Assembly (NCBI GenBank): GCA_009781765.1
Contig: WQVC01000005.1
Span: 1-53,005 of the forward strand
Direction: 5' to 3'
Length of the DNA stretch: 53,005 nucleotides
Source of the DNA: Defluviitaleaceae bacterium
GTDB taxonomy: Bacteria; Bacillota; Clostridia; Lachnospirales; WQUN01
Below, in pieces: positions 712 to 53,005 of the stretch (positions are counted from its first letter, which is position 1; the number at the start of each line of letters is the position of its first letter). The notes under the pieces were generated by a model. It was not told where the DNA came from. It did not search any database and saw only the letters and a program-made list of their open reading frames with translations. A program made the position numbers and the translations under genes.

Positions 712-740
712 CCTCAGCACCACGACTCATACGCCTCGAC

Positions 741-880
741 ATCACCCCGACCGGATTATCGCGAACGTACTTGAGAAGCCCGTTCAGGCTTAGTCGGAAA
801 ACGCGCTGAAACCCGCGATTTCCCGACTCGCCTTCGCGGTTCTCAAGGGCGTTCGCTATATATAATTCAGTCGGGGTGAT
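741..880. repeat. Family A palindromic repeat, copy 1 (140 bp)
   Basis: The ends are inverted: ATCACCCCGAC at the left and GTCGGGGTGAT at the right, extending inward as an imperfect repeat of about 25 bases (GGATTAT..GCGAACG against CGTTCGCTATATATAAT). Inside, TTGAGAAGCC pairs with GGTTCTCAAG and the centre contains further pairing arms (AGTCGGAAA, TTTCCCGACT). It matches the copy at 2089-2228 almost base for base with equal length. No reading frame is present. It resembles a MITE-type or REP-type element. Confidence 0.85.
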
Positions 881-989
881 TTTTTATACATTTTAATTCA
901 CCTTCTCATGCGGAATTGCTCTGTTGTACAGAGGGCGGGCATTATATTTTAACCCCGATTAAAGTCAAAACAAGGGACGGGGGCAGTTT

Positions 990-5334: not shown

Positions 5335-5438
5335 GAGAGTGTTGAAAAATAGCTTGAGGGTACGGGCAAAGAACGCCCGCACCCTTCAGGTCATTTTCCG
5401 AGATGCGGCATATGCGAAAGCGTAATTTTTCAACACTC
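5335..5438. repeat. Family B-prime palindromic repeat
   Basis: Ends GAGAGTGTTGAAAAAT and ATTTTTCAACACTC are inverted copies. The interior differs from family B proper: it has TCATTTTCCGAGATGCGGCATATGCGAAAGC (here split by position) and an inner hairpin GGGTACGGGC...GCCCGCACCC. The outer third matches the element at 27206-27314 in the opposite orientation. It occupies the gap between the spore-protein-like gene and the next plus-strand gene. Confidence 0.8.
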
Positions 5439-5548
5439 GCTTTAACTCTCTCTTTCCATTGTTTCAAAGTTGCGGAAATTTTATACATGCGATATTATTA
5501 GCGGTGCGGATTCGCATTTGAAGTCTGTTTTCGCAAAGGAGTGGTGAA

Positions 5549-8021: not shown

Positions 8022-9410
8022 ATGATTCACTGCTTTGAAATCGGAGAGCGCAATTTAGTTCTTGATGTAAACAGCGGCGCGTTACACAGTGTTGACGACG
8101 CCGCTTTTTACGTTCTGAAAAATATGGCCGCCGTTGAGAGTGTTGAAAAATGCCGTGAGCTGCGACGAGTTCGCAGAAAACCGGCGGCCCGGTTTTCGAG
8201 AACGAGCGAATGCGAACGGACAATTTTTCAACACTCCGAAATTCCCGCCGACACCCCCGAATCTTTGCGCCGGGAAATTCGCGAGCTGATTGACGCCGGG
8301 CAGCTCTTCTCACGCGACCGCGCCGATGAAGCTCACGAACACATGCAAAATCGTAACCCGGTTGTGAAGGCACTTTGTTTGCATATCGCCCACGAATGCA
8401 ATTTGCGATGCAAATACTGCTTCGCCGGGCAGGGCAATTATTCCGAAAACGACCGCGGGCTGATGCCTTTCGAAGTCGGCAAAAACGCGATTGACTTTCT
8501 TATTGAAAATTCCGGCACGCGCCGCAACCTCGAAGTCGATTTTTTCGGCGGCGAGCCGATGCTTAATTTTGACGTCGTGAAAAAAATCGTGGCATACGGG
8601 CGCGAACGCGAGGGCGAAAAAAACTTTCGCTTCACTCTCACAACAAACGCCGCGCTGCTCAGCGACGAAAATATTTCGTACATAAACGAAACTTTCGATA
8701 ACGTCGTGCTGTCCCTCGACGGGCGCAAGCACGTTAATGACAATATGCGCCCGTTTGCCGGCGGCGGCGGCAGTTACGATGAAATTCTGCCCCGGATAAA
8801 GGCGTTAGCGGATGCGCGGCAGGGCGCAAATTATTATGTTCGCGGTACGTACACGCGGCACAATCTCGACTTTGCCGCCGACGTACTGCATCTTGCCGAC
8901 GCCGGCTTCAAAAACATTTCCGTCGAACCGGTTGTTGCTCCGGCGGACACGGATTACGCTATTCGCGAGGAAGATTTGCCCGCACTTTTCGCCGAATATG
9001 AAAAACTCGCGCTCGCACTGCTTGCCCGCGAGCGCGAAGGGCGCGGCATCTTTTTTTTCCATTTCGAAACCGACCTCAGCGGCGGCCCGTGCATTGCCAA
9101 GCGCGTAACCGGTTGCGGCGCGGGCGCGGAATATTTGGCGGTAACGCCGTCGGGCAGGCTGTATCCCTGCCATCAGTTTGTTGGCGACGAGAAATTCATG
9201 CTCGACGCCCCCTCCCCCGCTTTCTCCGCAAATCACGTTTTTACAAAACCCGAATGCGCTGCCTGTTGGGCGAAATTTCACTGCGGCGGCGGCTGTTTTG
9301 CCACGGCATATCACATGAACGGCGATATTTCAAAGCCGGATAAAATTTCGTGCGAACTTATGAAAAAGCGCGTTGAGTGCGCGTTGTTTATGTTTGCTGA
9401 ACGTCAATGA
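8022..9410 (+). CDS. scfB: SCIFF radical SAM maturase with in-frame repeat insertion
   Basis: 462 residues; AAGGAG precedes the ATG and overlaps the previous stop region. The radical SAM cluster motif CNLRCKYC lies at about residues 127-134, followed by FFGGEP. A SPASM/twitch region near the C terminus provides extra cysteines (CHQF, CAACWAKFHCGGGC, SC). Its family installs thioether bridges between SCIFF cysteines and threonine alpha carbons. The N-terminal recognition region (LDVNSGALHSVDDAAFYVL) is typical. Residues about 39-72 (ESVEKCRELRRV...TIFQHS) are encoded by a family B repeat and have no place in the family; removal would restore an ordinary protein of about 428 residues. Confidence 0.93.
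   Translation: MIHCFEIGERNLVLDVNSGALHSVDDAAFYVLKNMAAVESVEKCRELRRVRRKPAARFSRTSECERTIFQHSEIPADTPESLRREIRELIDAGQLFSRDRADEAHEHMQNRNPVVKALCLHIAHECNLRCKYCFAGQGNYSENDRGLMPFEVGKNAIDFLIENSGTRRNLEVDFFGGEPMLNFDVVKKIVAYGREREGEKNFRFTLTTNAALLSDENISYINETFDNVVLSLDGRKHVNDNMRPFAGGGGSYDEILPRIKALADARQGANYYVRGTYTRHNLDFAADVLHLADAGFKNISVEPVVAPADTDYAIREEDLPALFAEYEKLALALLAREREGRGIFFFHFETDLSGGPCIAKRVTGCGAGAEYLAVTPSGRLYPCHQFVGDEKFMLDAPSPAFSANHVFTKPECAACWAKFHCGGGCFATAYHMNGDISKPDKISCELMKKRVECALFMFAERQ
8136..8236. repeat. Family B repeat inside scfB coding sequence
   Basis: GAGAGTGTTGAAAAATGCCG at the left and CAATTTTTCAACACTC at the right are inverted ends. The interior matches the intergenic copy at 15895-16003 in opposite orientation, including GTGAGCTGCGACGAGTTCGCAGAAAACCGG (described in parts) and ACGAGCG-ATGCGAACGGAC. 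It is 101 bp; with one flanking base the insertion is 102 bp, so the reading frame is preserved and no stop is created. Confidence 0.85.
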
Positions 9411-15894: not shown

Positions 15895-16003
15895 GAGAGT
15901 GCTGAAAAATTGTCCGTTCGCATACGCTCGTTCTCGAAAACCGGCCTGAACCCGCCGGTTTTCTGCGAACTCGTCGCAGCTCACGGCATTTTTCAACACT
16001 CTC
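15895..16003. repeat. Family B palindromic repeat, full-length intergenic copy
   Basis: 109 bp with inverted ends GAGAGTGCTGAAAAATTG and CATTTTTCAACACTCTC. The centre folds as AAAACCGGC/GCCGGTTTT. It is the closest relative of the copy inside scfB. It fills the space between livJ and the restriction endonuclease gene and lies within the likely livJ promoter region. Confidence 0.88.
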
Positions 16004-17935: not shown

Positions 17936-17997
17936 TAGCCACACCTCCGGCACAGTTTATTGTTCCGAGTTGTTGCTGTCAAATTTTTTTCCGGTTG

Positions 17998-18118
17998 TCA
18001 GGGGCTTCGCCCCCAAGCCCCCACGAACTTTTTTGGAAAAAAGTTCGACAAAAAACTCAAAAAATCGCGCTATCGCGCGATTTTAAGTTTTCCCCCGATT
18101 TTTTCAAAAAGCGGATTG
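17998..18118. repeat. Family D hairpin cluster, copy 2, with terminator module
   Basis: GGGGCTTCGCCCC, CGAACTTTTTT/AAAAAAGTTCG, AAAATCGCGC/GCGCGATTTT and CCGATTTTTTCAAAAAGCGG follow one another. The third hairpin has a T-run and probably acts as a terminator after fmt. It separates fmt from the restriction-modification operon upstream. Confidence 0.7.
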
Positions 18119-18124
18119 TTGCTG

Positions 18125-19168
18125 TCACCCCAAAAACTCCCCGATTTTCTGCCCGCGCAAATAATCCGTCGCCGCCATTCGCTTTTTTCCGACAGCCTGA
18201 AGCTCCGTCACTCGCAACGCGCCGTCGCCGGTTGCAACGATTAAACCGACCTTCGAATCCGCCGCCAAAACTCTGCCGGCAGAGTGTTCGAAAAGCTCCG
18301 TTTCGCATTTGCCGCATCTCAAGAACCGACCCGATGCCGTCGGTTCTTTGCGATGCAGGCACGGCTCAACGGGATTTTCGGACACTCTGCCGGGTTGCAA
18401 CTTTTGCAACTCCTCGCAATCCTCAATTTTCTCAACGCCCCAAATTTTAAGCGCATCCCCGCCGTACATAGTGAAGCACGCGAGCGCACGCACCCGGTTA
18501 AAAATTTTCTCGCTCGTGTCCGCCCAGTTAATCAGCCCGTCGGATTTTTTCAAAAGCGGCGCGTGACTCGCGAGCGCGTGATTTTGCGGAACTCGCGCTG
18601 CCGTTCCCGCCTCAATTTGCTCCAACGCCTCAAGCAACGCCTCCGCGCCCAGCGTCGCCATGCGGTCGTGCAATTCCGCGAACCGCTCGCTCTCCCCCAC
18701 TTCAAGCCGCTTTTGCAAAATCATGTCGCCGGTATCAAGCCCCGCGTCCATATGCATAATCGTTATGCCGGTTTCGCGGTCGCCGTTTAAAATCGCGGCA
18801 TGAATCGGCGACGCCCCCCGATATTTCGGCAACAACGACGCATGAACATTCACGCAACCAAACCGCGGCATCTCCAACACGCCCTTCGGAAGCAACAACC
18901 CGTACGCCGCAACAACAAAAATATCCGCGCCGAACGCAGCAAGTTCCTCACGAACCTCCCTGCTCTCCGACAAGCGCAGCGTTTCCGGCTGAAAAACCGG
19001 CAGACCGCGCTGAAGCGCAAACTCCTTCACCGGGCTTGCCGTAACCCTATGTCCGCGCCCGGCCGGCCGGTCCGGCTGCGTACACACCGCAACAACCTCG
19101 TGCTTGTCCATCAACGCTTCCAACGAAGCCGCCGCAAAAACCGGCGTTCCCATAAAAATTATTTTCAC
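18125..19168 (-). CDS. fmt: Methionyl-tRNA formyltransferase with in-frame repeat insertion
   Basis: 347 residues from the GTG of MKIIFMGTPVFA, which has AAAAGGAG upstream; the longer frame would be translated repeat. Catalytic landmarks are HASLLPKYRGASPIHAAILNGD (in parts) and ITIMHMDAGLDTGDM. It formylates initiator Met-tRNA. The usual length is about 310. Residues about 261-297 (SENPVEPCLHRKEP, SGRFLRCGKCETELFEHSAGRV) are encoded by a palindromic element at 18275-18394 inserted in the C-terminal beta-barrel domain; the flanking PGRV and AGRV look like a duplicated junction. The remainder (LIVATGDGALRVTELQAVGKKRM) resumes the normal family sequence. It pairs with def next door. Confidence 0.94.
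   Translation of the reverse strand: MKIIFMGTPVFAAASLEALMDKHEVVAVCTQPDRPAGRGHRVTASPVKEFALQRGLPVFQPETLRLSESREVREELAAFGADIFVVAAYGLLLPKGVLEMPRFGCVNVHASLLPKYRGASPIHAAILNGDRETGITIMHMDAGLDTGDMILQKRLEVGESERFAELHDRMATLGAEALLEALEQIEAGTAARVPQNHALASHAPLLKKSDGLINWADTSEKIFNRVRALACFTMYGGDALKIWGVEKIEDCEELQKLQPGRVSENPVEPCLHRKEPTASGRFLRCGKCETELFEHSAGRVLAADSKVGLIVATGDGALRVTELQAVGKKRMAATDYLRGQKIGEFLG
18275..18394. repeat. Family B-like repeat inside fmt
   Basis: GCCGGCAGAGTGTTCGAAAA and ATTTTCGGACACTCTGCCGGG are inverted ends, variants of the family B terminus GAGAGTGTTGAAAA. The interior has GCATTTGCCGCATCTC (as in B-prime at 27206) and a hairpin GAACCGAC...GTCGGTTC. The coding frame of fmt runs through it without a stop. 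Confidence 0.82.
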
Positions 19169-19189: not shown

Positions 19190-19345
19190 AGACCTTGGGG
19201 GAGAAACTTTTTTTGCAAAAAAGTCTCTCCCCCAAACCCCCTCTTCAAAAAACTTTAACAAAAAATCGCGCGAAGCGCGATTTTTAAATGTTTTTGTCGA
19301 ACTTTTTTTAAAAAGTTCGTGGGGTTCGGGGCGAAGCCCCGAGGT
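19190..19345. repeat. Family D hairpin cluster, copy 3
   Basis: Modules are TTGGGGGAGAAACTTTTTTT/AAAAAAGTCTCTCCCCCAA (partly paired), AAAAATCGCGCGAAGCGCGATTTTT, CGAACTTTTTTTAAAAAGTTCG and GGGGCGAAGCCCC. It occupies the whole gap between def and fmt, so the two genes are not tightly linked although their neighbourhood is conserved. Confidence 0.7.
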
Positions 19346-26620: not shown

Positions 26621-26629
26621 GCCGACGCC

Positions 26630-26672
26630 GGAGGCAAATACAACCGGCCGCGCATTCCCTCGAAGCCGGACA
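26630..26672. repeat. Family C repeat, intergenic
   Basis: GACGCCGGAGGCAAATACAAC at the left and GCGCATTCCCTCGAAGCCGG at the right, the second being the diagnostic family C end. The stem with the CAA loop is missing here. Confidence 0.7.
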
Positions 26673-27205: not shown

Positions 27206-27314
27206 GAGAGTGTTGAAAAATTACGCTTTCGCATATGCCGCATCTCGGAAAATGACCTAAAGCCGTCATTTTCCTGCGATGCCGGCACAGCTAAAGCTAT
27301 TTTTCAACACTCTC
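27206..27314. repeat. Family B-prime palindromic repeat
   Basis: 109 bp with ends GAGAGTGTTGAAAAATTAC and TATTTTTCAACACTCTC. Inside are GCTTTCGCATATGCCGCATCTC and a stem AAAATGACCT/GTCATTTTCC. It has the same interior as 5335-5438. The 27024-27343 gap otherwise holds an AT-rich tract with no gene visible. Confidence 0.85.
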
Positions 27315-27343: not shown

Positions 27344-28636
27344 ATGAATAAAAATGACAGAACAAACGACGGTAAAAAAGATGCGTTCTACAGCGAGGAA
27401 CTTTCACGCGCTGCCGTGCAGCTTCTTTGGGCTTCCGACGACGATGACGACGACGCGCAGCCCCAAAAACCCGCGCCCGCTCAAAGCCCGTTTGTTTCCG
27501 GGTTCGACCGGGAGCAGGAAAACCCCGACAGAGCGCCCACGAAAAATATTGATGCCGAACAGTTTAAACCTCGGCTTCATACCGTTCCGCCCCCGGACGG
27601 CGACGAGCCTCCTCGTCCGCCGCGTCCGGCACGTCCGCGTTTAGGCGAAACCGCGCAACGCCCTCGCCTGCATGAAACCGCGCCGCGTCCGCGTTTGGGT
27701 GAAACTGCTCCGCGCCCGCGTCTGCACGAAACCGCACCGCGCCCCTCTTTGGGAACTCCGCCCGAAGACGATTTTGAAGAAACCGGTCGTCGTCGTCGTT
27801 CGTCGGCGGCAACAAACAGGGTTCTTCACGGCGATACATCCGAACTTAATTTCGAACGCCCCGGTCGCGAACGTCCGCGCCGCAGAAATCCCGCGCCTAA
27901 TCCGGCCGTGCGTGTAAACGTTGAGCATCCCGTTCCGCACGACCGCGACGACGACGAACCCGCCTCCGAACAGGATTTGGACGGCTTCCGCCGCAGGTTT
28001 AATTCCGGCGAACTTGTTTCGCCGCCGCGAAATACAAATCGGCCGCCGCGCCCCGGTGCCGGCAACAACGACGTTCGCACAAATCGCATGAGAACCGACC
28101 ATACCGAAACCGAACCGATTAGCCCTTTTCGTGTAGTTTTGGCAGGTGCGGCAATTTTTATGCTTGCGATTGCAGCAATTTTAGTATGGCAAATCGTTTC
28201 CGTTCGAAGCGACCTTCGCGAAGCGGAAACTCTGCTTGAAGATGCCGAAATCGCACTTGCAAACGCAAACGCTCAAATCAGCATTCAATCGTCCAGATAT
28301 AACGACCAATTAAACGAAGCGCGGGCCGAGGCAGACACCTACCGCAATATTCTCATCGCAAACGACCTCGACCCCAATCCGTCACCGCCGCCCGCCGACG
28401 GCATCGGCCCCGGCGAAGCGACCGGTCAGCCGGGCCAAACATCTCCGCCCGCCACGCCCGAACTTCCCACAACCCACATCATACAACCGGGCGAAAATCT
28501 TAATATGATTGCCCGCCGCTACTTCCCCGGCGTCGATGTGCAGTTGGCAATAAATCACATCGTTGCAACAAATAATATTCCGAACCCGAACAATGTTCCC
28601 GCCGGGCGTCTGCTTAATATCGAGCCGATGGAATAG
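27344..28636 (+). CDS. LysM-domain membrane protein with repetitive linker
   Basis: 430 residues. The N-terminal 260 residues are charged, proline-arginine-rich and contain an alternating short repeat (RPRLGETAP/RPRLHETAP, residues about 100-145). One membrane segment lies at about 263-286 (VVLAGAAIFMLAIAAILVW), followed by a coiled coil (SDLREAETLLEDAEIALANANAQI) and a proline-rich spacer. A C-terminal LysM domain (about 380-428: HIIQPGENLNMIARRYF...VPAGRLLNIEPM) should bind peptidoglycan outside the membrane. The N terminus would be cytoplasmic. It may tether an internal structure to the wall; the specific function is unknown. Confidence 0.75.
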   Translation: MNKNDRTNDGKKDAFYSEELSRAAVQLLWASDDDDDDAQPQKPAPAQSPFVSGFDREQENPDRAPTKNIDAEQFKPRLHTVPPPDGDEPPRPPRPARPRLGETAQRPRLHETAPRPRLGETAPRPRLHETAPRPSLGTPPEDDFEETGRRRRSSAATNRVLHGDTSELNFERPGRERPRRRNPAPNPAVRVNVEHPVPHDRDDDEPASEQDLDGFRRRFNSGELVSPPRNTNRPPRPGAGNNDVRTNRMRTDHTETEPISPFRVVLAGAAIFMLAIAAILVWQIVSVRSDLREAETLLEDAEIALANANAQISIQSSRYNDQLNEARAEADTYRNILIANDLDPNPSPPPADGIGPGEATGQPGQTSPPATPELPTTHIIQPGENLNMIARRYFPGVDVQLAINHIVATNNIPNPNNVPAGRLLNIEPME

Positions 28637-28710
28637 TGCGCCAAGCGCACTTTGGACGCCGGGGACATATAGCGGCGTCGGTACATTCTCTCGAAGCCGA
28701 ACTGAGCCGG
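28636..28710. repeat. Family C repeat with intact CAA-loop hairpin
   Basis: GTGCGCCAAGCGCAC (28636-28650) is a six-base-pair stem with CAA loop; its first base is the last base of the LysM-protein stop codon. Then come the seven-base spacer TTTGGAC, GCCGGGGACA, a GGCGTC arm, and GTACATTCTCTCGAAGCCG. This is the reference intergenic arrangement of the family. Confidence 0.82.
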
Positions 28711-28784: not shown

Positions 28785-28900
28785 CGACAAAAACTTTAAA
28801 ATTAACACCGAAAATCGCGCGAAAGCGCGATTTTTTATTGTTTTTGCCACGCTTTTTTCAAAAAGCGTGTGGGGGATTGGGGGCGAAGCCCCCAAAAATT
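28785..28900. repeat. Family D hairpin cluster, copy with terminator module
   Basis: GAAAATCGCGCGAAAGCGCGATTTT with a T-run (28810-28837) acts as a terminator, followed by ACGCTTTTTTCAAAAAGCGT and TTGGGGGCGAAGCCCCCAA. Between this and the next gene (28901-29060) no further structure was recognised beyond an AT-rich upstream region. Confidence 0.72.
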
Positions 28901-31052: not shown

Positions 31053-33400
31053 TGTTCAATATTTCCGAAGAATTAAAAAAACTGCCTGCCCGCCCCGGCG
31101 TGTATATAATGAAGGACAGCGAAAACACTGTCATCTATGTGGGCAAGGCAAAAAATTTGCATAATCGGGTGCGGCACTATTTTCAAAAAACGGTGCCGGA
31201 CGTAAAAACGGCGCAACTCGCAAAAAAAATTACACATTTCGAATACGTTGTCACCGACACGGAAAACGAAGCCTTCATATTAGAAAACAATTTAATAAAA
31301 CTTCACCGCCCCAAGTACAATATCCGCTTGAAGGACGGAAAATCGTATCCGTATATAAAAATCACCGCCGAACGGTTGCCGCGTGTTTTAATTTCGCACA
31401 AACGCGGCAAGGATAAGGCGAAGTATTACGGGCCGTTTGTAACCGGTTCGCACGTGCATGATTTACTCGAACTGATGCACCGATTATGGCCGTTGCGCCG
31501 CTGCGCGAAGCTGTTTCCGCGCGATTTCGACAAGGGTCGCCCGTGCCTTAACAATCATATCGGGCAGTGCAAAGCACCGTGCAACCGACTTTTGCCCGAG
31601 GAAATTTATGACGAATATGTACGGGAAGCCGAGCGATTTATTCGCGGCAAAACGTCCGACGTTGCCGAACGGCTTTCTCGCGAGATGCACGAAGCCGCCG
31701 AAAAAATGGAGTTTGAACGCGCGGCAGAACTTCGCGACACAATAAACGCGCTGAAAATGCTCAAGGAACGTCAAAAAACCGAAACCGGCGAGGACGACCG
31801 CGATTATATCGCCACTGCGCAAAAAAATAACGAAGCTCTGATGCAGGTTTTTTTCGTACGCGGCGGAAAATTGGTCGGGCGCGAGCATTTCTTAACCGAG
31901 GGCATTGCTTCCGATGAAATGCATTCGGATGAAGTGTCCTCGAATGAAGCTCATTCGGATGAAACGCATTCGACACCTTCGCCCGAAGCACTTTCTGATA
32001 ACGTGCATTCGCCGAACGAGTCCGACATTGCCGGCGACAGTATCGAAAGCAATTCATCCGACACCGCAGAAAGCAATTCATCCGGCGTCGATACAGCATC
32101 CGCCGTTTCTGCATTTATCAAGCAGTTCTACGGCGAGGCGGCGTTTATTCCCAAGGAAATCGTTGTTGCGGAAGCGGCGGATAAGGCTTCAATTTCCGCA
32201 TGGCTTTCGGAGCGAGCCGGCAGGCAGGTTGCAATCGTCGTGCCGAAAATAGGCGAAAAGCTCAAAATGCTCAAACTCGCGCAAACAAATGCCGAGCTTA
32301 CAATGTCGCAATTCGGGGCGCACATTAAAAGGGAAACGGAGCGAAACGCCGCCGCCCTTGCGGAAATTTCCGAGGCATTAGGCGCGCAAAAACTTACACG
32401 TATCGAAGCATATGATATTTCAAATATTCAGGGTTACGAGTCCGTCGGGTCGATGGTGGTGTTCGAAAACGGCAAAGCAAAGCCCACCGATTATCGGAAA
32501 TTCCGGCTGCGCACGGTTGTCGGGCCGGATGATTATGCGGCAATGGAGGAAGTTCTTTCGCGCCGACTCGCCCGCTTGCGCCAAGCGCACGAAGCCCGCC
32601 AAGCGGGCGATGATAGCCGGGAACATATGTCGGATGCAACGCATTCCCACGAGGCCCGCCAAGCGGGCGATGATAGCCGGGAACACGTGTCGGATGCAAC
32701 GCATTCCCACGAGGCTCGCCAAGCGGGCGGTGATAGCCGGGAACACGTGTCTGATGCAACACATTCCCACGAAGCCGGTTCGGTTGCGCGGGATGATGCG
32801 CGCCGGAGCACACGCCCGGACTCCTTCTGCATTCTCCCGGATATAATTTTCGCTGACGGCGGCAAGGGTCAAATCTCTGCCGTCGAGAAAGCATTGCGCG
32901 AGCATAATATTAACATTCCCGTTTGCGGAATGGTCAAAGATGAACGCCATCGCACACGCGGTCTTCTTGTGCGCGCCCGCCAAGCGGGCAATGATAGCCG
33001 GGAACACATGCACGCAGCAACACATTCCCTCGAAGCCGGTTCGGATTTGCACAGCCGGGGACACACACAAGCAACCGCACATTCCCTCGAAGCCGACTCT
33101 GCCTTTCGGGAAATAATTTTGCCGCGCCACAGCGAAGGCTTCAAACTTCTCACGCGAATACAAGACGAGGTGCATCGTTTCGCGTTGGAGTATCATAAAA
33201 AATTGCGGGCGGAGTCGCAAACGCGCTCTGTTTTGGATGAAATCCCGGGCATCGGCAAAACCCGCCGCAAAGAGCTTCTCAGGCACTTTAAAAGCATCGA
33301 CGCGATTCGCGCGGCAAGCATCGACGAACTTTCCGCCGCGCCGTCCATGAACAAAAAATCCGCCGAGGCGGTACATAACTTTTTCAACAAGGAGCGTTGA
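31052..33400 (+). CDS. uvrC: Excinuclease UvrC with three in-frame insertions
   Basis: 782 residues against about 600 in the family. The GIY-YIG nuclease is at the N terminus (PGVYIMKDSENTVIYVGKA), with the UvrB-binding UVR motif at about 210-245 (EAAEKMEFERAAELRD). The RNase-H-like nuclease is split across IEAYDISNIQGYESVGSMVVF, IIFADGGKGQI and GMVKDERHRTRGL. Helix-hairpin-helix motifs end the protein (IPGIGKTRRKELLRHF). Extra sequence lies at about 285-349 (Ser/Asp/Glu/His repeat), 513-583 (three 20-residue copies of HEARQAGDDSREHVSDATHS) and 641-685 (two more partial copies), the latter two from family C DNA. All insertions fall between conserved blocks and keep the catalytic residues, so activity is probably retained. 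Confidence 0.95.
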   Translation: MFNISEELKKLPARPGVYIMKDSENTVIYVGKAKNLHNRVRHYFQKTVPDVKTAQLAKKITHFEYVVTDTENEAFILENNLIKLHRPKYNIRLKDGKSYPYIKITAERLPRVLISHKRGKDKAKYYGPFVTGSHVHDLLELMHRLWPLRRCAKLFPRDFDKGRPCLNNHIGQCKAPCNRLLPEEIYDEYVREAERFIRGKTSDVAERLSREMHEAAEKMEFERAAELRDTINALKMLKERQKTETGEDDRDYIATAQKNNEALMQVFFVRGGKLVGREHFLTEGIASDEMHSDEVSSNEAHSDETHSTPSPEALSDNVHSPNESDIAGDSIESNSSDTAESNSSGVDTASAVSAFIKQFYGEAAFIPKEIVVAEAADKASISAWLSERAGRQVAIVVPKIGEKLKMLKLAQTNAELTMSQFGAHIKRETERNAAALAEISEALGAQKLTRIEAYDISNIQGYESVGSMVVFENGKAKPTDYRKFRLRTVVGPDDYAAMEEVLSRRLARLRQAHEARQAGDDSREHMSDATHSHEARQAGDDSREHVSDATHSHEARQAGGDSREHVSDATHSHEAGSVARDDARRSTRPDSFCILPDIIFADGGKGQISAVEKALREHNINIPVCGMVKDERHRTRGLLVRARQAGNDSREHMHAATHSLEAGSDLHSRGHTQATAHSLEADSAFREIILPRHSEGFKLLTRIQDEVHRFALEYHKKLRAESQTRSVLDEIPGIGKTRRKELLRHFKSIDAIRAASIDELSAAPSMNKKSAEAVHNFFNKER
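31908..32097 (+). repeat. Short-period minisatellite inside uvrC
   Basis: Degenerate units around TCGGATGAAxxGCAT encode SDEMHSDEVSSNEAHSDETHS-like sequence (given in part) and later AATTCATCCG..AGCAATTCATCC repeats. It is unrelated to the family C copies and sits between the UVR motif and the RNase-H domain. It adds about 60 residues. Confidence 0.7.
32587..32780 (+). repeat. Family C repeat array in uvrC (three 60-bp copies plus end)
   Basis: Exact 60-base period. Each unit has GCCCGCCAAGCGGGC (six-base-pair stem with CAA loop; the third has GCTCGCC), the spacer GATGATA or GGTGATA, GCCGGGAACAC, and ACGCATTCCCACGAGGC. The second and third units differ at very few bases, which suggests recent tandem duplication. 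The period of 60 is 20 codons, so the frame is preserved. Confidence 0.88.
32976..33102 (+). repeat. Family C repeats in uvrC, second site
   Basis: One full unit (GCCCGCCAAGCGGGC, AATGATA, GCCGGGAACACATG, ACACATTCCCTCGAAGCCGG) and one without the stem (CCGGGGACACACACAAGC, GCACATTCCCTCGAAGCCG). They lie about 200 bases after the first array, with conserved UvrC sequence between. Confidence 0.85.
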
Positions 33401-37416: not shown

Positions 37417-37456
37417 AAAAAAGGTGAACTTCCTTTTTTCATTGCGAAGGAAACTG

Positions 37457-37523
37457 CCCCGGCTTCGAGGGAATGCGCGGCAACTCACATGTGTCCCCGG
37501 TGTTCAAAGTGCGCTTGGCGCAC
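37457..37523. repeat. Family C repeat, minus orientation, intact hairpin
   Basis: Read on the minus strand: GTGCGCCAAGCGCAC (six-base-pair stem, CAA loop), spacer TTTGAAC, ACCGGGGACACATGTGAG, then GCGCATTCCCTCGAAGCCGG. The spacer differs from the copy at 28636 by one base. It lies after whiA. Confidence 0.82.
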
Positions 37524-37595
37524 TTTTTCATCCGAATAATTGAGCCGCAAGCGGGCCTTGCCAACGTTAAGCGGCATGAGACTAGGAGTGATTGT

Positions 37596-41514: not shown

Positions 41515-43929
41515 ATGAAGGTACTGCACATGATTTCCGGCGGCGATAAGGGCGGCGCAAAAACTTCGGTTTTCGCGCTTCTTTTGGCGTTAAACGAAGA
41601 GGTTGACATCACCGTTGCCTGCTTTACGGAGGGCGTTTTCTATCGGGAAGTTTTGGAATTGCCCGTAAAATCGGTTCTTTTCAAGCAAAAATTTCGCAAC
41701 GATTTAAGCATAATCGGCAAATTGTCGCGATACGTGCGGCAAAACGGCTTTGACATCATCCACGCGCACGGCGCACGTGCAAATTTTATTTCGATGATGT
41801 TAAAGCCTTTTGTTTTTGTGCCGATTGTTACAACCGTACATAGCGATTATAAGCTGGATTTCACGGACAAATTCTACAAACGGCTGTTTTACACCGGGCT
41901 TAATTCTGTCGCGCTTCGTACGCTTGATTATTACATCGGCGTGTCGGAAGAATTTCGCAGAATGCTGATAAATCGCGGCTTTGACGAAAGTCGCGTGTTT
42001 TCGGTGTACAACTCGTTGGACTTCAAAAAAGAAATTTCATTTTGCCCCAAAGACGAATTTTTGCAACGCTACGGCATAAACGCCGAGGGAAAAATTTTGG
42101 TGGGAATTATAGGGCGATTTGATTTTGTAAAGGGACACGATATTTTTTTGCGGTGCGCCGCGCGCGTCAAACGCGCGGTGAACGCCGGAGACACGTGCGG
42201 GTTCCAACACGTTCCCTCGAAGCCGGAGCGCGTCAAACGCGCAACGGAAGCCGGGGACACGTGCGGGTTGCAACACATTCCCTCGAAGCCGGATGCAGCG
42301 TCGGAAGCCGGGGACACGTCGCACGAGCCGCACATTCCCTCGAAGCCGGATGCGGCGTCGAAAAAAGAATTCCTCTTTCTGCTTGCCGGCGAAGGCCCGG
42401 AGGAAGCGACGCTCCGAAAGCTCGCGGAATCCCTCGGAATTGCGGAAAACGTGGTTTTTTGCGGGTTTGTGAACGATATTTTCAGCTTTATCAATGCGAT
42501 TGACATAAATGTTTGCGCGTCGCGCTCGGAAAGTTTTCCGTTTATGCTTTTGGAAGGCTCGCGGCTGAAAAAGCCTACGGTTTCGACGGCTGTGGGCGGG
42601 ATTCCCGAGCTTATTTCGTCCGGCGAAACGGGATTTCTTGTTCCGGACGGCGATTATGCCGGGCTTGCCGAAAAAATTTTGTTTTACGCAGAAAACCCCG
42701 AAACAGCGGCATTGCACGGCGAAAATCTCCATTTGCGCGCGAAAACCAATTTTTCCAAGGAGAGTCTGCAAAAAAAGTCGGTTGAAATATACGAAGAGAT
42801 TTTGCGCAAGGAAAAGGCGGCAAATCGCCTTTTCGACGTTATGCTTACCGGCTATTACGGTTATGCGAACTCCGGCGACGATGCAATTTTGGACACGATA
42901 ATTAAGTCGCTTCGCAATGAACGCGACGGACTTTCGCTGTTGGTTTTGAGCAAAAATCCGCAGGAAACAACCCGCGATTACGGCGTTTTTGCAATTCATC
43001 GGCTTAATTTTTTTCGTGTGCGGCGATACATGAAGCGTTCGCGCTTAATTGTGTACGGCGGCGGCAGTCTGATGCAAGATATTACAAGCACGAGGTCGCT
43101 TGTTTACTACACTTTTCTTGTTCACTTGGCAAAACATGCGGGAATGCGCGTGATGCTTTACGGCAACGGAATCGGACCGATTATCAAACCGCGCAACGAA
43201 AAAAAGGTTCGCCGCGCTTTGAACAAATGCGATTATATCTCGCTTCGCGACCCCGAATCCTTGGAATTCATCAAGAAAATCGGGGTGAAAAATCCGAACG
43301 TTGCCGTAAGTATCGACCCGGTTTTTAACATCGCGGAGGCGGAGGCAGAGCCTCTTTTCGCCGGGGACACATCCGAAGAGCTTTTGCATTCCCTCGAAGC
43401 CGAAAATTGCTTCGCGGTTTCGCTGCGGCCGTGGCAGTATAACGAACCCGGATTTATCGAAAAAATTGCACATGCAATCAATCATGCCGCCGAAAATTAC
43501 AATCTCACGCCGCTGCTTATTCCCATGCACCTCATGGATGTTCCGATTTTAAAGGAAACCGCCAAACGCCTGCATTGCCGGCACGAAATTCTCACAAAGG
43601 TGTACGATTACAAAACGATTATTGCGATTATTGCCCGCACCCGATTTGCAATATGTATGCGGCTTCACGCCCTGATTTACGCCGCCGGCGCAGGCGTACC
43701 GATTATCGGCCTCGTTTACGACCCCAAGGTTGCCGGTTTTATCTCCTACATGAACGAAGAAACCGCCGTTGATACCGCAAATTTAGACTTGCCCGCCCTG
43801 CTCGCCATGATTGACCGCATCATGCAAGACCCCGCCGCCGCAAAAGAAAAAATCGCCCGCGAACGCGAACGACTCAAAAAATTAGCGGGGCGTGATGCAA
43901 AAGTTGCGGTCGGGTTATTGACCGTTTGA
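41515..43929 (+). CDS. csaB: GT4 glycosyltransferase-CsaB polysaccharide pyruvyl transferase fusion
   Basis: 804 residues. Residues 1-425 are a GT-B glycosyltransferase (family 4): MISGGDKGGAKTSVFALL, IIHAHGARANF, GIIGRFDFVKGHDIFL, NVCASRSESFPFMLLEGSRL and ELISSGETGFLV. Residues 440-800 are polysaccharide pyruvyl transferase CsaB: GYYGYANSGDDAILDTII, YGGGSLMQDITSTRSLVYY, YGNGIGPI, and AICMRLHALIYAAGAGVPIIG. CsaB pyruvylates wall polysaccharide for S-layer anchoring. Family C DNA adds about 67 residues (217-283; RVKRAVNAGDTCGFQHVPSK and two more copies) in the first domain and about 14 (617-630, AGDTSEELLHSLEA) in the second. Confidence 0.92.
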   Translation: MKVLHMISGGDKGGAKTSVFALLLALNEEVDITVACFTEGVFYREVLELPVKSVLFKQKFRNDLSIIGKLSRYVRQNGFDIIHAHGARANFISMMLKPFVFVPIVTTVHSDYKLDFTDKFYKRLFYTGLNSVALRTLDYYIGVSEEFRRMLINRGFDESRVFSVYNSLDFKKEISFCPKDEFLQRYGINAEGKILVGIIGRFDFVKGHDIFLRCAARVKRAVNAGDTCGFQHVPSKPERVKRATEAGDTCGLQHIPSKPDAASEAGDTSHEPHIPSKPDAASKKEFLFLLAGEGPEEATLRKLAESLGIAENVVFCGFVNDIFSFINAIDINVCASRSESFPFMLLEGSRLKKPTVSTAVGGIPELISSGETGFLVPDGDYAGLAEKILFYAENPETAALHGENLHLRAKTNFSKESLQKKSVEIYEEILRKEKAANRLFDVMLTGYYGYANSGDDAILDTIIKSLRNERDGLSLLVLSKNPQETTRDYGVFAIHRLNFFRVRRYMKRSRLIVYGGGSLMQDITSTRSLVYYTFLVHLAKHAGMRVMLYGNGIGPIIKPRNEKKVRRALNKCDYISLRDPESLEFIKKIGVKNPNVAVSIDPVFNIAEAEAEPLFAGDTSEELLHSLEAENCFAVSLRPWQYNEPGFIEKIAHAINHAAENYNLTPLLIPMHLMDVPILKETAKRLHCRHEILTKVYDYKTIIAIIARTRFAICMRLHALIYAAGAGVPIIGLVYDPKVAGFISYMNEETAVDTANLDLPALLAMIDRIMQDPAAAKEKIARERERLKKLAGRDAKVAVGLLTV
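42162..42360 (+). repeat. Family C repeat array inside the GT4-CsaB gene (three copies)
   Basis: Two 66-base units start GCGCGTCAAACGCGC (six-base-pair stem, CAA loop), have spacers GGTGAAC and AACGGAA, then GCCGGRGACACGTGCGGGTT and CCCTCGAAGCCGG. A third unit of about 57 bases lacks the stem. All lengths are multiples of three. The stem sequence differs from the GCCCGC/GCGGGC of uvrC and GTGCGC/GCGCAC elsewhere but remains perfectly paired. Confidence 0.88.
43364..43403 (+). repeat. Family C repeat in the CsaB half (minimal copy)
   Basis: GCCGGGGACACATCCGAAG then GCATTCCCTCGAAGCCG, without the stem. It encodes AGDTSEELLHSLEA in the same frame as the uvrC second site (HSLEA). Confidence 0.75.
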
Positions 43930-46429: not shown

Positions 46430-46558
46430 CTCAGAAACTTTTGAAAAAGTTTCATCAAAACTTTAATAAAAAATCGCGCTTCGCGCGATTTTAACGGTTT
46501 TTGCCCCGCTTTTTTCAAAAAGCGGGTGGGGGCACATGGGGGCGAAGCCCCCATATCC
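46430..46558. repeat. Family D hairpin cluster, with terminator module
   Basis: GAAACTTTTGAAAAAGTTTC, AAAATCGCGCTTCGCGCGATTTT, CCCGCTTTTTTCAAAAAGCGGG and TGGGGGCGAAGCCCCCA in series, ending just after the ispD stop. The 420-base gap between ispD and the SatD gene holds this, the terminator at 46331 and the SatD promoter. Confidence 0.75.
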
Positions 46559-52871: not shown

Positions 52872-53005
52872 TCACCCCCAAACACTCGCACTTTTGTAGC
52901 GAACGCACTTGAGAAATCCGTTCAGGTTTCGTCGGAAAACGCGCAGAAGCCCGCGATTTCCCGACTCGCCTTCACGGTTCTCAAAGGCGTTCGCTATACT
53001 TGCGC
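52872..53005. repeat. Family A repeat, third copy, cut by window edge
   Basis: TCACCCC at the left, then GCGAACGCACTTGAGAAATCCG and GTTCTCAAAGGCGTTCGCTAT match family A copies 1 and 2 across about 105 bases with scattered differences. The left part is more diverged, and the right end (GTCGGGGTGAT) is outside or lost. Confidence 0.8.

What the first reader, a model, noticed from the sequence alone, without database searches (positions are those of the whole stretch)
18275..18394. B-like element in fmt with an apparent duplicated junction
The Fmt C-terminal domain is interrupted by about 36 residues. The protein reads PGRV before and AGRV after, matching the CCGGCAGAGTG ends, so the duplicated target may be hidden in the element's own ends. 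This gives a clue to how the element inserts.
Basis: partly seen in the sequence, partly recalled or inferred. Interest (0 to 1): 0.65.

Follow-up and report, generated by a model that had tools for sequence, protein, structure and literature searches.

The report
Hairpin mobile element inside fmt
A 109-base hairpin-shaped mobile DNA element, one of about 80 in this termite-gut bacterium's genome, has landed inside the gene for methionyl-tRNA formyltransferase without breaking the reading frame, because element plus its 5-base target duplication adds exactly 38 codons.

Summary
It is a diverged copy of a palindromic element with roughly 80 copies in this genome. The family consensus is 109 bp, GAGAGTGTTGAAAAAT...ATTTTTCAACACTCTC.

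Across 51 copies the element makes a 5-bp target duplication just outside its ends (70% identity versus 28% shuffled; 15 exact versus 0.4). A sister-genome empty site in azlC confirms this: CCGCA is duplicated and 114 bp are inserted. At fmt the direct repeat is 10 bp (CCGGCAGAGT), so the five duplicated bases cannot be fixed uniquely. CCGGC|109 bp|CCGGC is the register closest to the family ends. End-like target flanks are not a family rule.

Other copies lie in frame in mfd, azlC, scfB and a membrane-protein gene, as Rickettsia palindromic elements do. A 73-nt core hairpin with conserved internal loops and strong covariation recurs in seven genomes of the family, some with unrelated terminal arms. 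No Rfam, phage, plasmid or viral match was found, and no mobilising transposase.

The parts
18125..19162 (-). fmt, methionyl-tRNA formyltransferase, with a 38-residue in-frame insert in the C-terminal domain
   Evidence: TIGR00460 equivalog above cut-off; Pfam Formyl_trans_N and Formyl_trans_C, the latter matched at 204-338 across the insert; alignment with relatives
18280..18388 (-). the inserted palindromic element (109 bp in the 5-bp-duplication register; the symmetric CAGAG...CTCTG hairpin is 18280-18389)
   Evidence: genome-wide family matches; fold z -7.8; registers
18389..18393 (-). target duplication, upstream (coding-strand) copy CCGGC; part of the 10-bp direct repeat CCGGCAGAGT (18384-18393)
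   Evidence: duplication length from family statistic and azlC empty site
18275..18279 (-). target duplication, downstream copy CCGGC; part of the 10-bp direct repeat CCGGCAGAGT (18270-18279)
18299..18371 (-). conserved core hairpin (GCA/GA internal loop, 10-bp apical stem, 8-nt loop)
   Evidence: covariance model R1 hit, 85.7 bits, the fmt copy being one of the 18 model sequences; covariation
8136..8238 (+). another copy (103 bp), in frame inside the SCIFF-peptide maturase gene
   Evidence: TIGR03974 covers the protein end to end including the insert
15895..16003 (-). another copy (109 bp, subfamily with GCCGTGAGCTGCGACGAG arm)
27206..27314 (-). another copy (109 bp, main subfamily), imperfect 5-bp duplication TACTC/TACCC
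5335..5440 (+). another copy (106 bp) whose core is partly replaced by a different small hairpin

Best explanation
The feature is one old copy of a non-autonomous, MITE-like palindromic element that transposes by a cut with a 5-bp stagger, leaving 5-bp target duplications, presumably through a DDE-type transposase acting in trans. The element is 109 bp (a common longer form is 136 bp) and has at least one stop-free frame. Insertion plus duplication therefore adds 114 (or 141) bp, a whole number of codons, and a copy in the right frame can survive inside an essential gene as an extra loop, as Rickettsia palindromic elements do. At fmt it landed in a length-variable loop before the PG(T)V strand of the C-terminal domain, and the gene stayed open. 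Shown: family, 5-bp duplication, in-frame net 38 codons, absence in relatives. Inferred: transposase in trans, tolerance of the protein, the exact duplicated bases at fmt.
For: 157 terminal repeats in this genome versus background level in relatives. 5-bp duplication over 51 copies: 0.702 identity versus 0.282 +/- 0.030 shuffled, 15 exact versus 0.40; lengths 2-4 and 6-9 show no comparable signal. azlC empty site: a relative reads AAC CAC GCC CCC GCA CTA; this genome reads AAC CAC TCT CCC GCA [109 bp] CCGCA CTT. mfd also has a 38-residue insert absent in relatives. fmt insert is exactly 114 bp between 10-bp direct repeats and is absent in relatives. fmt, azlC and mfd (114 bp), scfB (108 bp) and the L140 gene (168 and 84 bp) are all multiples of three. 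Every copy has at least one open frame; mean 1.9 versus 0.96 in shuffled copies. The AlphaFold2 model of the interrupted Fmt is confident except mainly residues 259-291 of the insert, which form a low-confidence loop between two strands.
Against: No transposase with these ends was found: no PF01609 or PF13751 in the genome, and no terminal-repeat pair 0.6-4 kb apart with a matching duplication and convincing ends in the stretches fetched. The fmt copy's outermost bases (CAGAG) differ from the family (GAGAG), and the 10-bp repeat leaves six possible registers. The empty site at fmt itself is only inferred, since relatives' linkers there are too diverged for base-level comparison. The multiple-of-three property is shared by 27 of 43 other copies, so it is not proof of selection.
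Confidence: 0.85

Rival explanations
1. Homology at the ends drives insertion: the element enters by pairing of its own terminal GAGAGTG with a like sequence at the target (recombination or template switching), so the repeated junction is the element's end, not a duplication.
For: At fmt the target continues with AGAGT, at azlC the bases before the duplication are CACTCTC, and one further copy (L093) is followed by GAGTGG.
Against: Over 48 copies, flanks outside the 5-bp duplication match the element's ends no better than background overall, with one 7/7 case only, azlC. Many copies have clean 5-bp duplications with unrelated flanks. In the azlC relatives the codon that matches the end in this genome is different (GCC/GCG instead of TCT), so the match may not be ancestral there.
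Confidence: 0.08
2. The hairpin is primarily a conserved structured RNA or single-strand DNA signal (for example a recombinase or RNA-protein site) whose core is selected, and mobility with exchangeable terminal arms is secondary.
For: The same 73-nt core with mostly fixed internal loops occurs in seven genomes of three genera, with 17 of 27 pairs showing compensatory changes and 70 both-side cells versus 20.8 shuffled. Core identity to four other genomes is 0.71-0.77 while the arms are at 0.35-0.45.
Against: No Rfam match. Compensatory change in inverted repeats can also arise by template-switch correction of quasi-palindromes, and several copies have lost the GCA/GA internal loop altogether. 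Copies in genes and in either orientation argue against one transcribed role.
Confidence: 0.25
3. The extra 38 residues are a lineage-specific protein insertion, such as a domesticated zinc-ribbon-like loop (CGKC motif), and the resemblance to repeats is incidental.
For: The insert carries three cysteines (C..CGKC) and is open.
Against: Matching DNA copies genome-wide, strong hairpin and model match and a flanking direct repeat. The model gives no confident fold for the insert.
Confidence: 0.03

Closest known systems
Rickettsia palindromic elements (RPE; Ogata et al. 2000, as summarised in PMC10969869)
   Same: About 100-150-bp palindromic repeats, many copies, inserted in frame inside unrelated protein genes; open through the element; non-autonomous.
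   Different: Unrelated lineage (Defluviitaleaceae-type Bacillota, probably termite gut). A precise 5-bp target duplication is demonstrated here. The interrupted fmt, scfB and azlC proteins match no RPE-type model among the NCBIfam hits shown.
MITEs (IS-derived miniature inverted-repeat transposable elements)
   Same: Short, terminal inverted repeats, target duplications, no transposase gene, high copy number in one genome.
   Different: No parent insertion sequence found. Between genomes the internal core is conserved while the termini change, the reverse of the usual MITE pattern.
ERIC / BOX / Correia-type repeats (recalled, not tested)
   Same: Long imperfect hairpin, nested hairpin insertions, mostly intergenic.
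   Different: Different sequence as far as recalled; a 5-bp duplication; several in-frame intragenic copies.
Coding palindromes of Nematomorpha mitochondrial genes (PMC6649704, abstract)
   Same: Inverted repeats embedded in protein-coding genes.
   Different: Animal mitochondria; not shown to be a dispersed mobile family with duplications in a bacterium.

Membership tests
MITE | terminal inverted repeats | tested here: met
   GAGAGTGTTGAAAAAT/ATTTTTCAACACTCTC in most copies
MITE | target-site duplication of fixed length | tested here: met
   5 bp; at fmt consistent but register ambiguous
MITE | short, many copies, no transposase gene | tested here: met
   mostly 109 or 136 bp, 157 termini
MITE | ends shared with an autonomous parent element | tested here: inconclusive
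   no parent found in the stretches fetched or by two transposase families; genome 94% complete, other transposase families not searched
Rickettsia palindromic element | in-frame insertion in conserved protein genes | tested here: met
   fmt, mfd, azlC with insert-free homologues; scfB by profile
Rickettsia palindromic element | sequence relationship to RPE families | tested here: not met
   no RPE-type family among the NCBIfam hits shown for the interrupted fmt, scfB and azlC proteins (for scfB only the best 25 of 66 hits were shown); direct DNA comparison not done; that NCBIfam holds RPE models is from memory
Known Rfam RNA family | covariance-model match at gathering score | tested here: not met
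   0 matches in the window; only sub-threshold chance matches for one copy

The most novel reading that the evidence does not exclude
A conserved structured core (RNA or single-strand DNA hairpin with fixed internal loops) is the selected, mobile unit in this bacterial family and is carried by elements whose terminal arms have been replaced between lineages. In the present species it has been amplified as a frame-neutral element that inserts loops into essential proteins.
Probability: 0.25. Interest if true: 0.72.

Novelty: new variant of a known kind. Interest (0 to 1): 0.55.

Why it matters
In-frame palindromic insertions are best known from Rickettsia. Here is an independent case in a gut Bacillota with a measured 5-bp duplication, an empty site in a sister genome, and arithmetic (109 + 5 = 114) that explains why insertion in a gene can be harmless. 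The conserved core with exchanged ends across genera gives a concrete handle on what drives such small hairpin elements, whose mobilising enzymes are often unknown.

Tried and rejected
Parent insertion sequence: terminal-repeat pairs 0.6-4 kb apart with matching duplications in fetched stretches gave nothing convincing; no DDE_Tnp_1 or DDE_Tnp_1_6 in the genome; ORFs beside five unpaired termini showed ordinary genes and one serine recombinase, none a DDE transposase by eye. G009 contigs that begin in half a core hairpin looked like a longer autonomous element but proved to be a second hairpin nested in the arm. 4-bp CCGG as the true duplication at fmt: possible, but a 5-bp register exists (CCGGC) and fits the family. 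End-like target preference: tested and not a rule. Known RNA family: none. Phage, plasmid and viral occurrence: none. A search for 5-bp duplications around the core elements of other genomes was not conclusive.

Full report
What is there. The window is one contig (C5) of a 2.9-Mb, 154-contig genome whose closest named fmt relatives are Defluviitaleaceae and Clostridiales MAGs; the termite-gut source is inferred from those relatives. fmt lies on the minus strand (18125-19162) and the finding falls in its C-terminal part. On the coding strand the gene reads CAA CCC GGC AGA GTG TCC ... GAA CAC TCT GCC GGC AGA GTT TTG. A 10-bp direct repeat, CCGGCAGAGT, stands 114 bp apart. Relatives from the same genus to the same order, aligned over this region, have no such insert. 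The protein is still a methionyl-tRNA formyltransferase by profile.

The element family. The inserted DNA is one diverged copy of a family of imperfect hairpins (about 70-81% identity to most other copies it matches). The terminus GAGAGTGTTGAAAAAT with at most one mismatch occurs 78 times forward and 79 reverse in this genome, against 0-4 in each of 195 relatives, and 0 times here for the reversed control. I extracted 51 candidate copies with flanks. The pentamers just outside GAGAG...CTCTC agree at 70% of positions against 28% (sd 3%) after shuffling, and 15 are exact against 0.4 expected; other lengths give nothing comparable. So the family duplicates 5 bp. The commonest lengths are 109 bp and, with a small extra hairpin, 136 bp. 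Three subfamilies are visible; the fmt copy groups with C83:7125-7253 (locus L002) in having ends CAGAG...CTCTG.

Empty sites. For azlC, two relatives at 81-82% protein identity read AAC CA(C/T) GC(C/G) CCC GCA CTA ATC, and this genome reads AAC CAC TCT CCC GCA [109 bp] CC GCA CTT ATC: one copy of CCGCA became two and exactly 114 bp were added. mfd has a 38-residue insert in a loop whose length varies in relatives, with a decayed duplication. For fmt the nearest relative is 78% identical and its linker too different for base-level comparison, so the empty site CAACCCGGCAGAGTTTTGG is inferred. Any of six registers gives a 5-bp duplication plus a 109-bp element; the one with ends closest to the family is CCGGC|AGAGTG...CACTCTG|CCGGC. 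Because CCGG is its own reverse complement, the duplicated bases look like part of the terminal inverted repeat. The further match (AGAGT) is shared by target and element end. Such end-like flanks are not enriched across the family, so they say nothing general about insertion.

Why genes survive. 109 + 5 and 136 + 5 are multiples of three, and each copy has at least one stop-free frame (mean 1.9 of 6 against 0.96 in shuffled sequence). The in-gene copies (fmt, mfd, azlC, scfB at window 8136-8238, and two in one membrane-protein gene, L140) all add whole codons. At fmt the frame used differs from that of the other in-gene copies. In sister copies that frame usually meets a TAG (one search lists 1 TAG in most sister matches); the fmt subfamily has one extra base in the left arm and no stop. 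An AlphaFold2 model from 17 sequences is confident (mean pLDDT 86.5) except residues 259-291, a low-confidence loop between two C-terminal strands.

The core. The inner 73 nt form the same hairpin in all subfamilies and in six other genomes of the bacterial family: a 4-bp helix, GA/GA loop, a helix with one bulged U, a GCA/GA internal loop, a 10-bp apical stem and an 8-nt loop. On 18 sequences 93.6% of cells pair, 17 of 27 pairs have changes on both sides, and 70 such cells are seen against 20.8 in shuffles; the structure was taken from a fold of one of these sequences, so the percentage paired is favoured, and relatedness is not removed by the shuffles. In G001, G005, G009 and G021 the core is 71-77% identical to copies here but the outer arms only 35-45%, and their termini are different sequences. 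This is the opposite of what a transposase-driven MITE should show, where the termini are the conserved part. It may mean a selected core, or merely old common descent with fast-changing arms. Template-switch correction of quasi-palindromes can also make paired changes, and some copies have become near-perfect palindromes, so I do not claim an RNA function. Rfam has no match.

How it probably moves. A 5-bp staggered cut with terminal inverted repeats points to a DDE-type transposase in trans (inference). None was found: no PF01609 or PF13751 in the genome, and no long element with these ends among the stretches taken.

Placement. It works like Rickettsia palindromic elements (PMC10969869 summarises them) and has the defining features of a MITE except a demonstrated parent. 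It is not filed as an RPE, since the interrupted proteins match no such family. I rate it a new variant of a known kind.

Noticed in passing
window 718-887, 2066-2235, 52894-52998: A second hairpin repeat family (ends around CGCGAACG...CGTTCGCG, core CCGTGAAGGCGAGTCGGGAAATCGCGGG) with a similar architecture; weak hits of the core model R1.
   Followed up: partly
L137:10264-10412 (contig C14): A related long hairpin lies in frame near the 3' end of a serine-recombinase gene, next to an unpaired CTTTTTCAACACTCTC terminus.
   Followed up: partly
L140:3144-4142 (contig C31, minus strand): One predicted membrane protein gene holds two in-frame copies (163 and 79 bp) of the element.
   Followed up: partly
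L210, L213 (genome G009): In a same-genus genome the core hairpin carries a second nested hairpin in one arm, at several loci and at contig ends.
   Followed up: partly
L183:1501-1692 (genome G021): Two core hairpins in tandem; this genome has 13 core copies with ends unlike those in the window genome.
   Followed up: no
window 17984-18094, 19249-19345, 28799-28892, 46457-46551: Repeated intergenic stretches with AAAATCGCGCG..CGCGATTTTT hairpins near TTTTTGCC..GCTTTTTCAAAAAGCGG, possibly a terminator-like or intergenic repeat of its own.
   Followed up: no
window 26624-26670, 28630-28698, 32588-33097, 37456-37532, 42156-42350: Another dispersed repeat ending CATTCCCTCGAAGCCGG, partly tandem with 57-66-bp spacing.
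   Followed up: no
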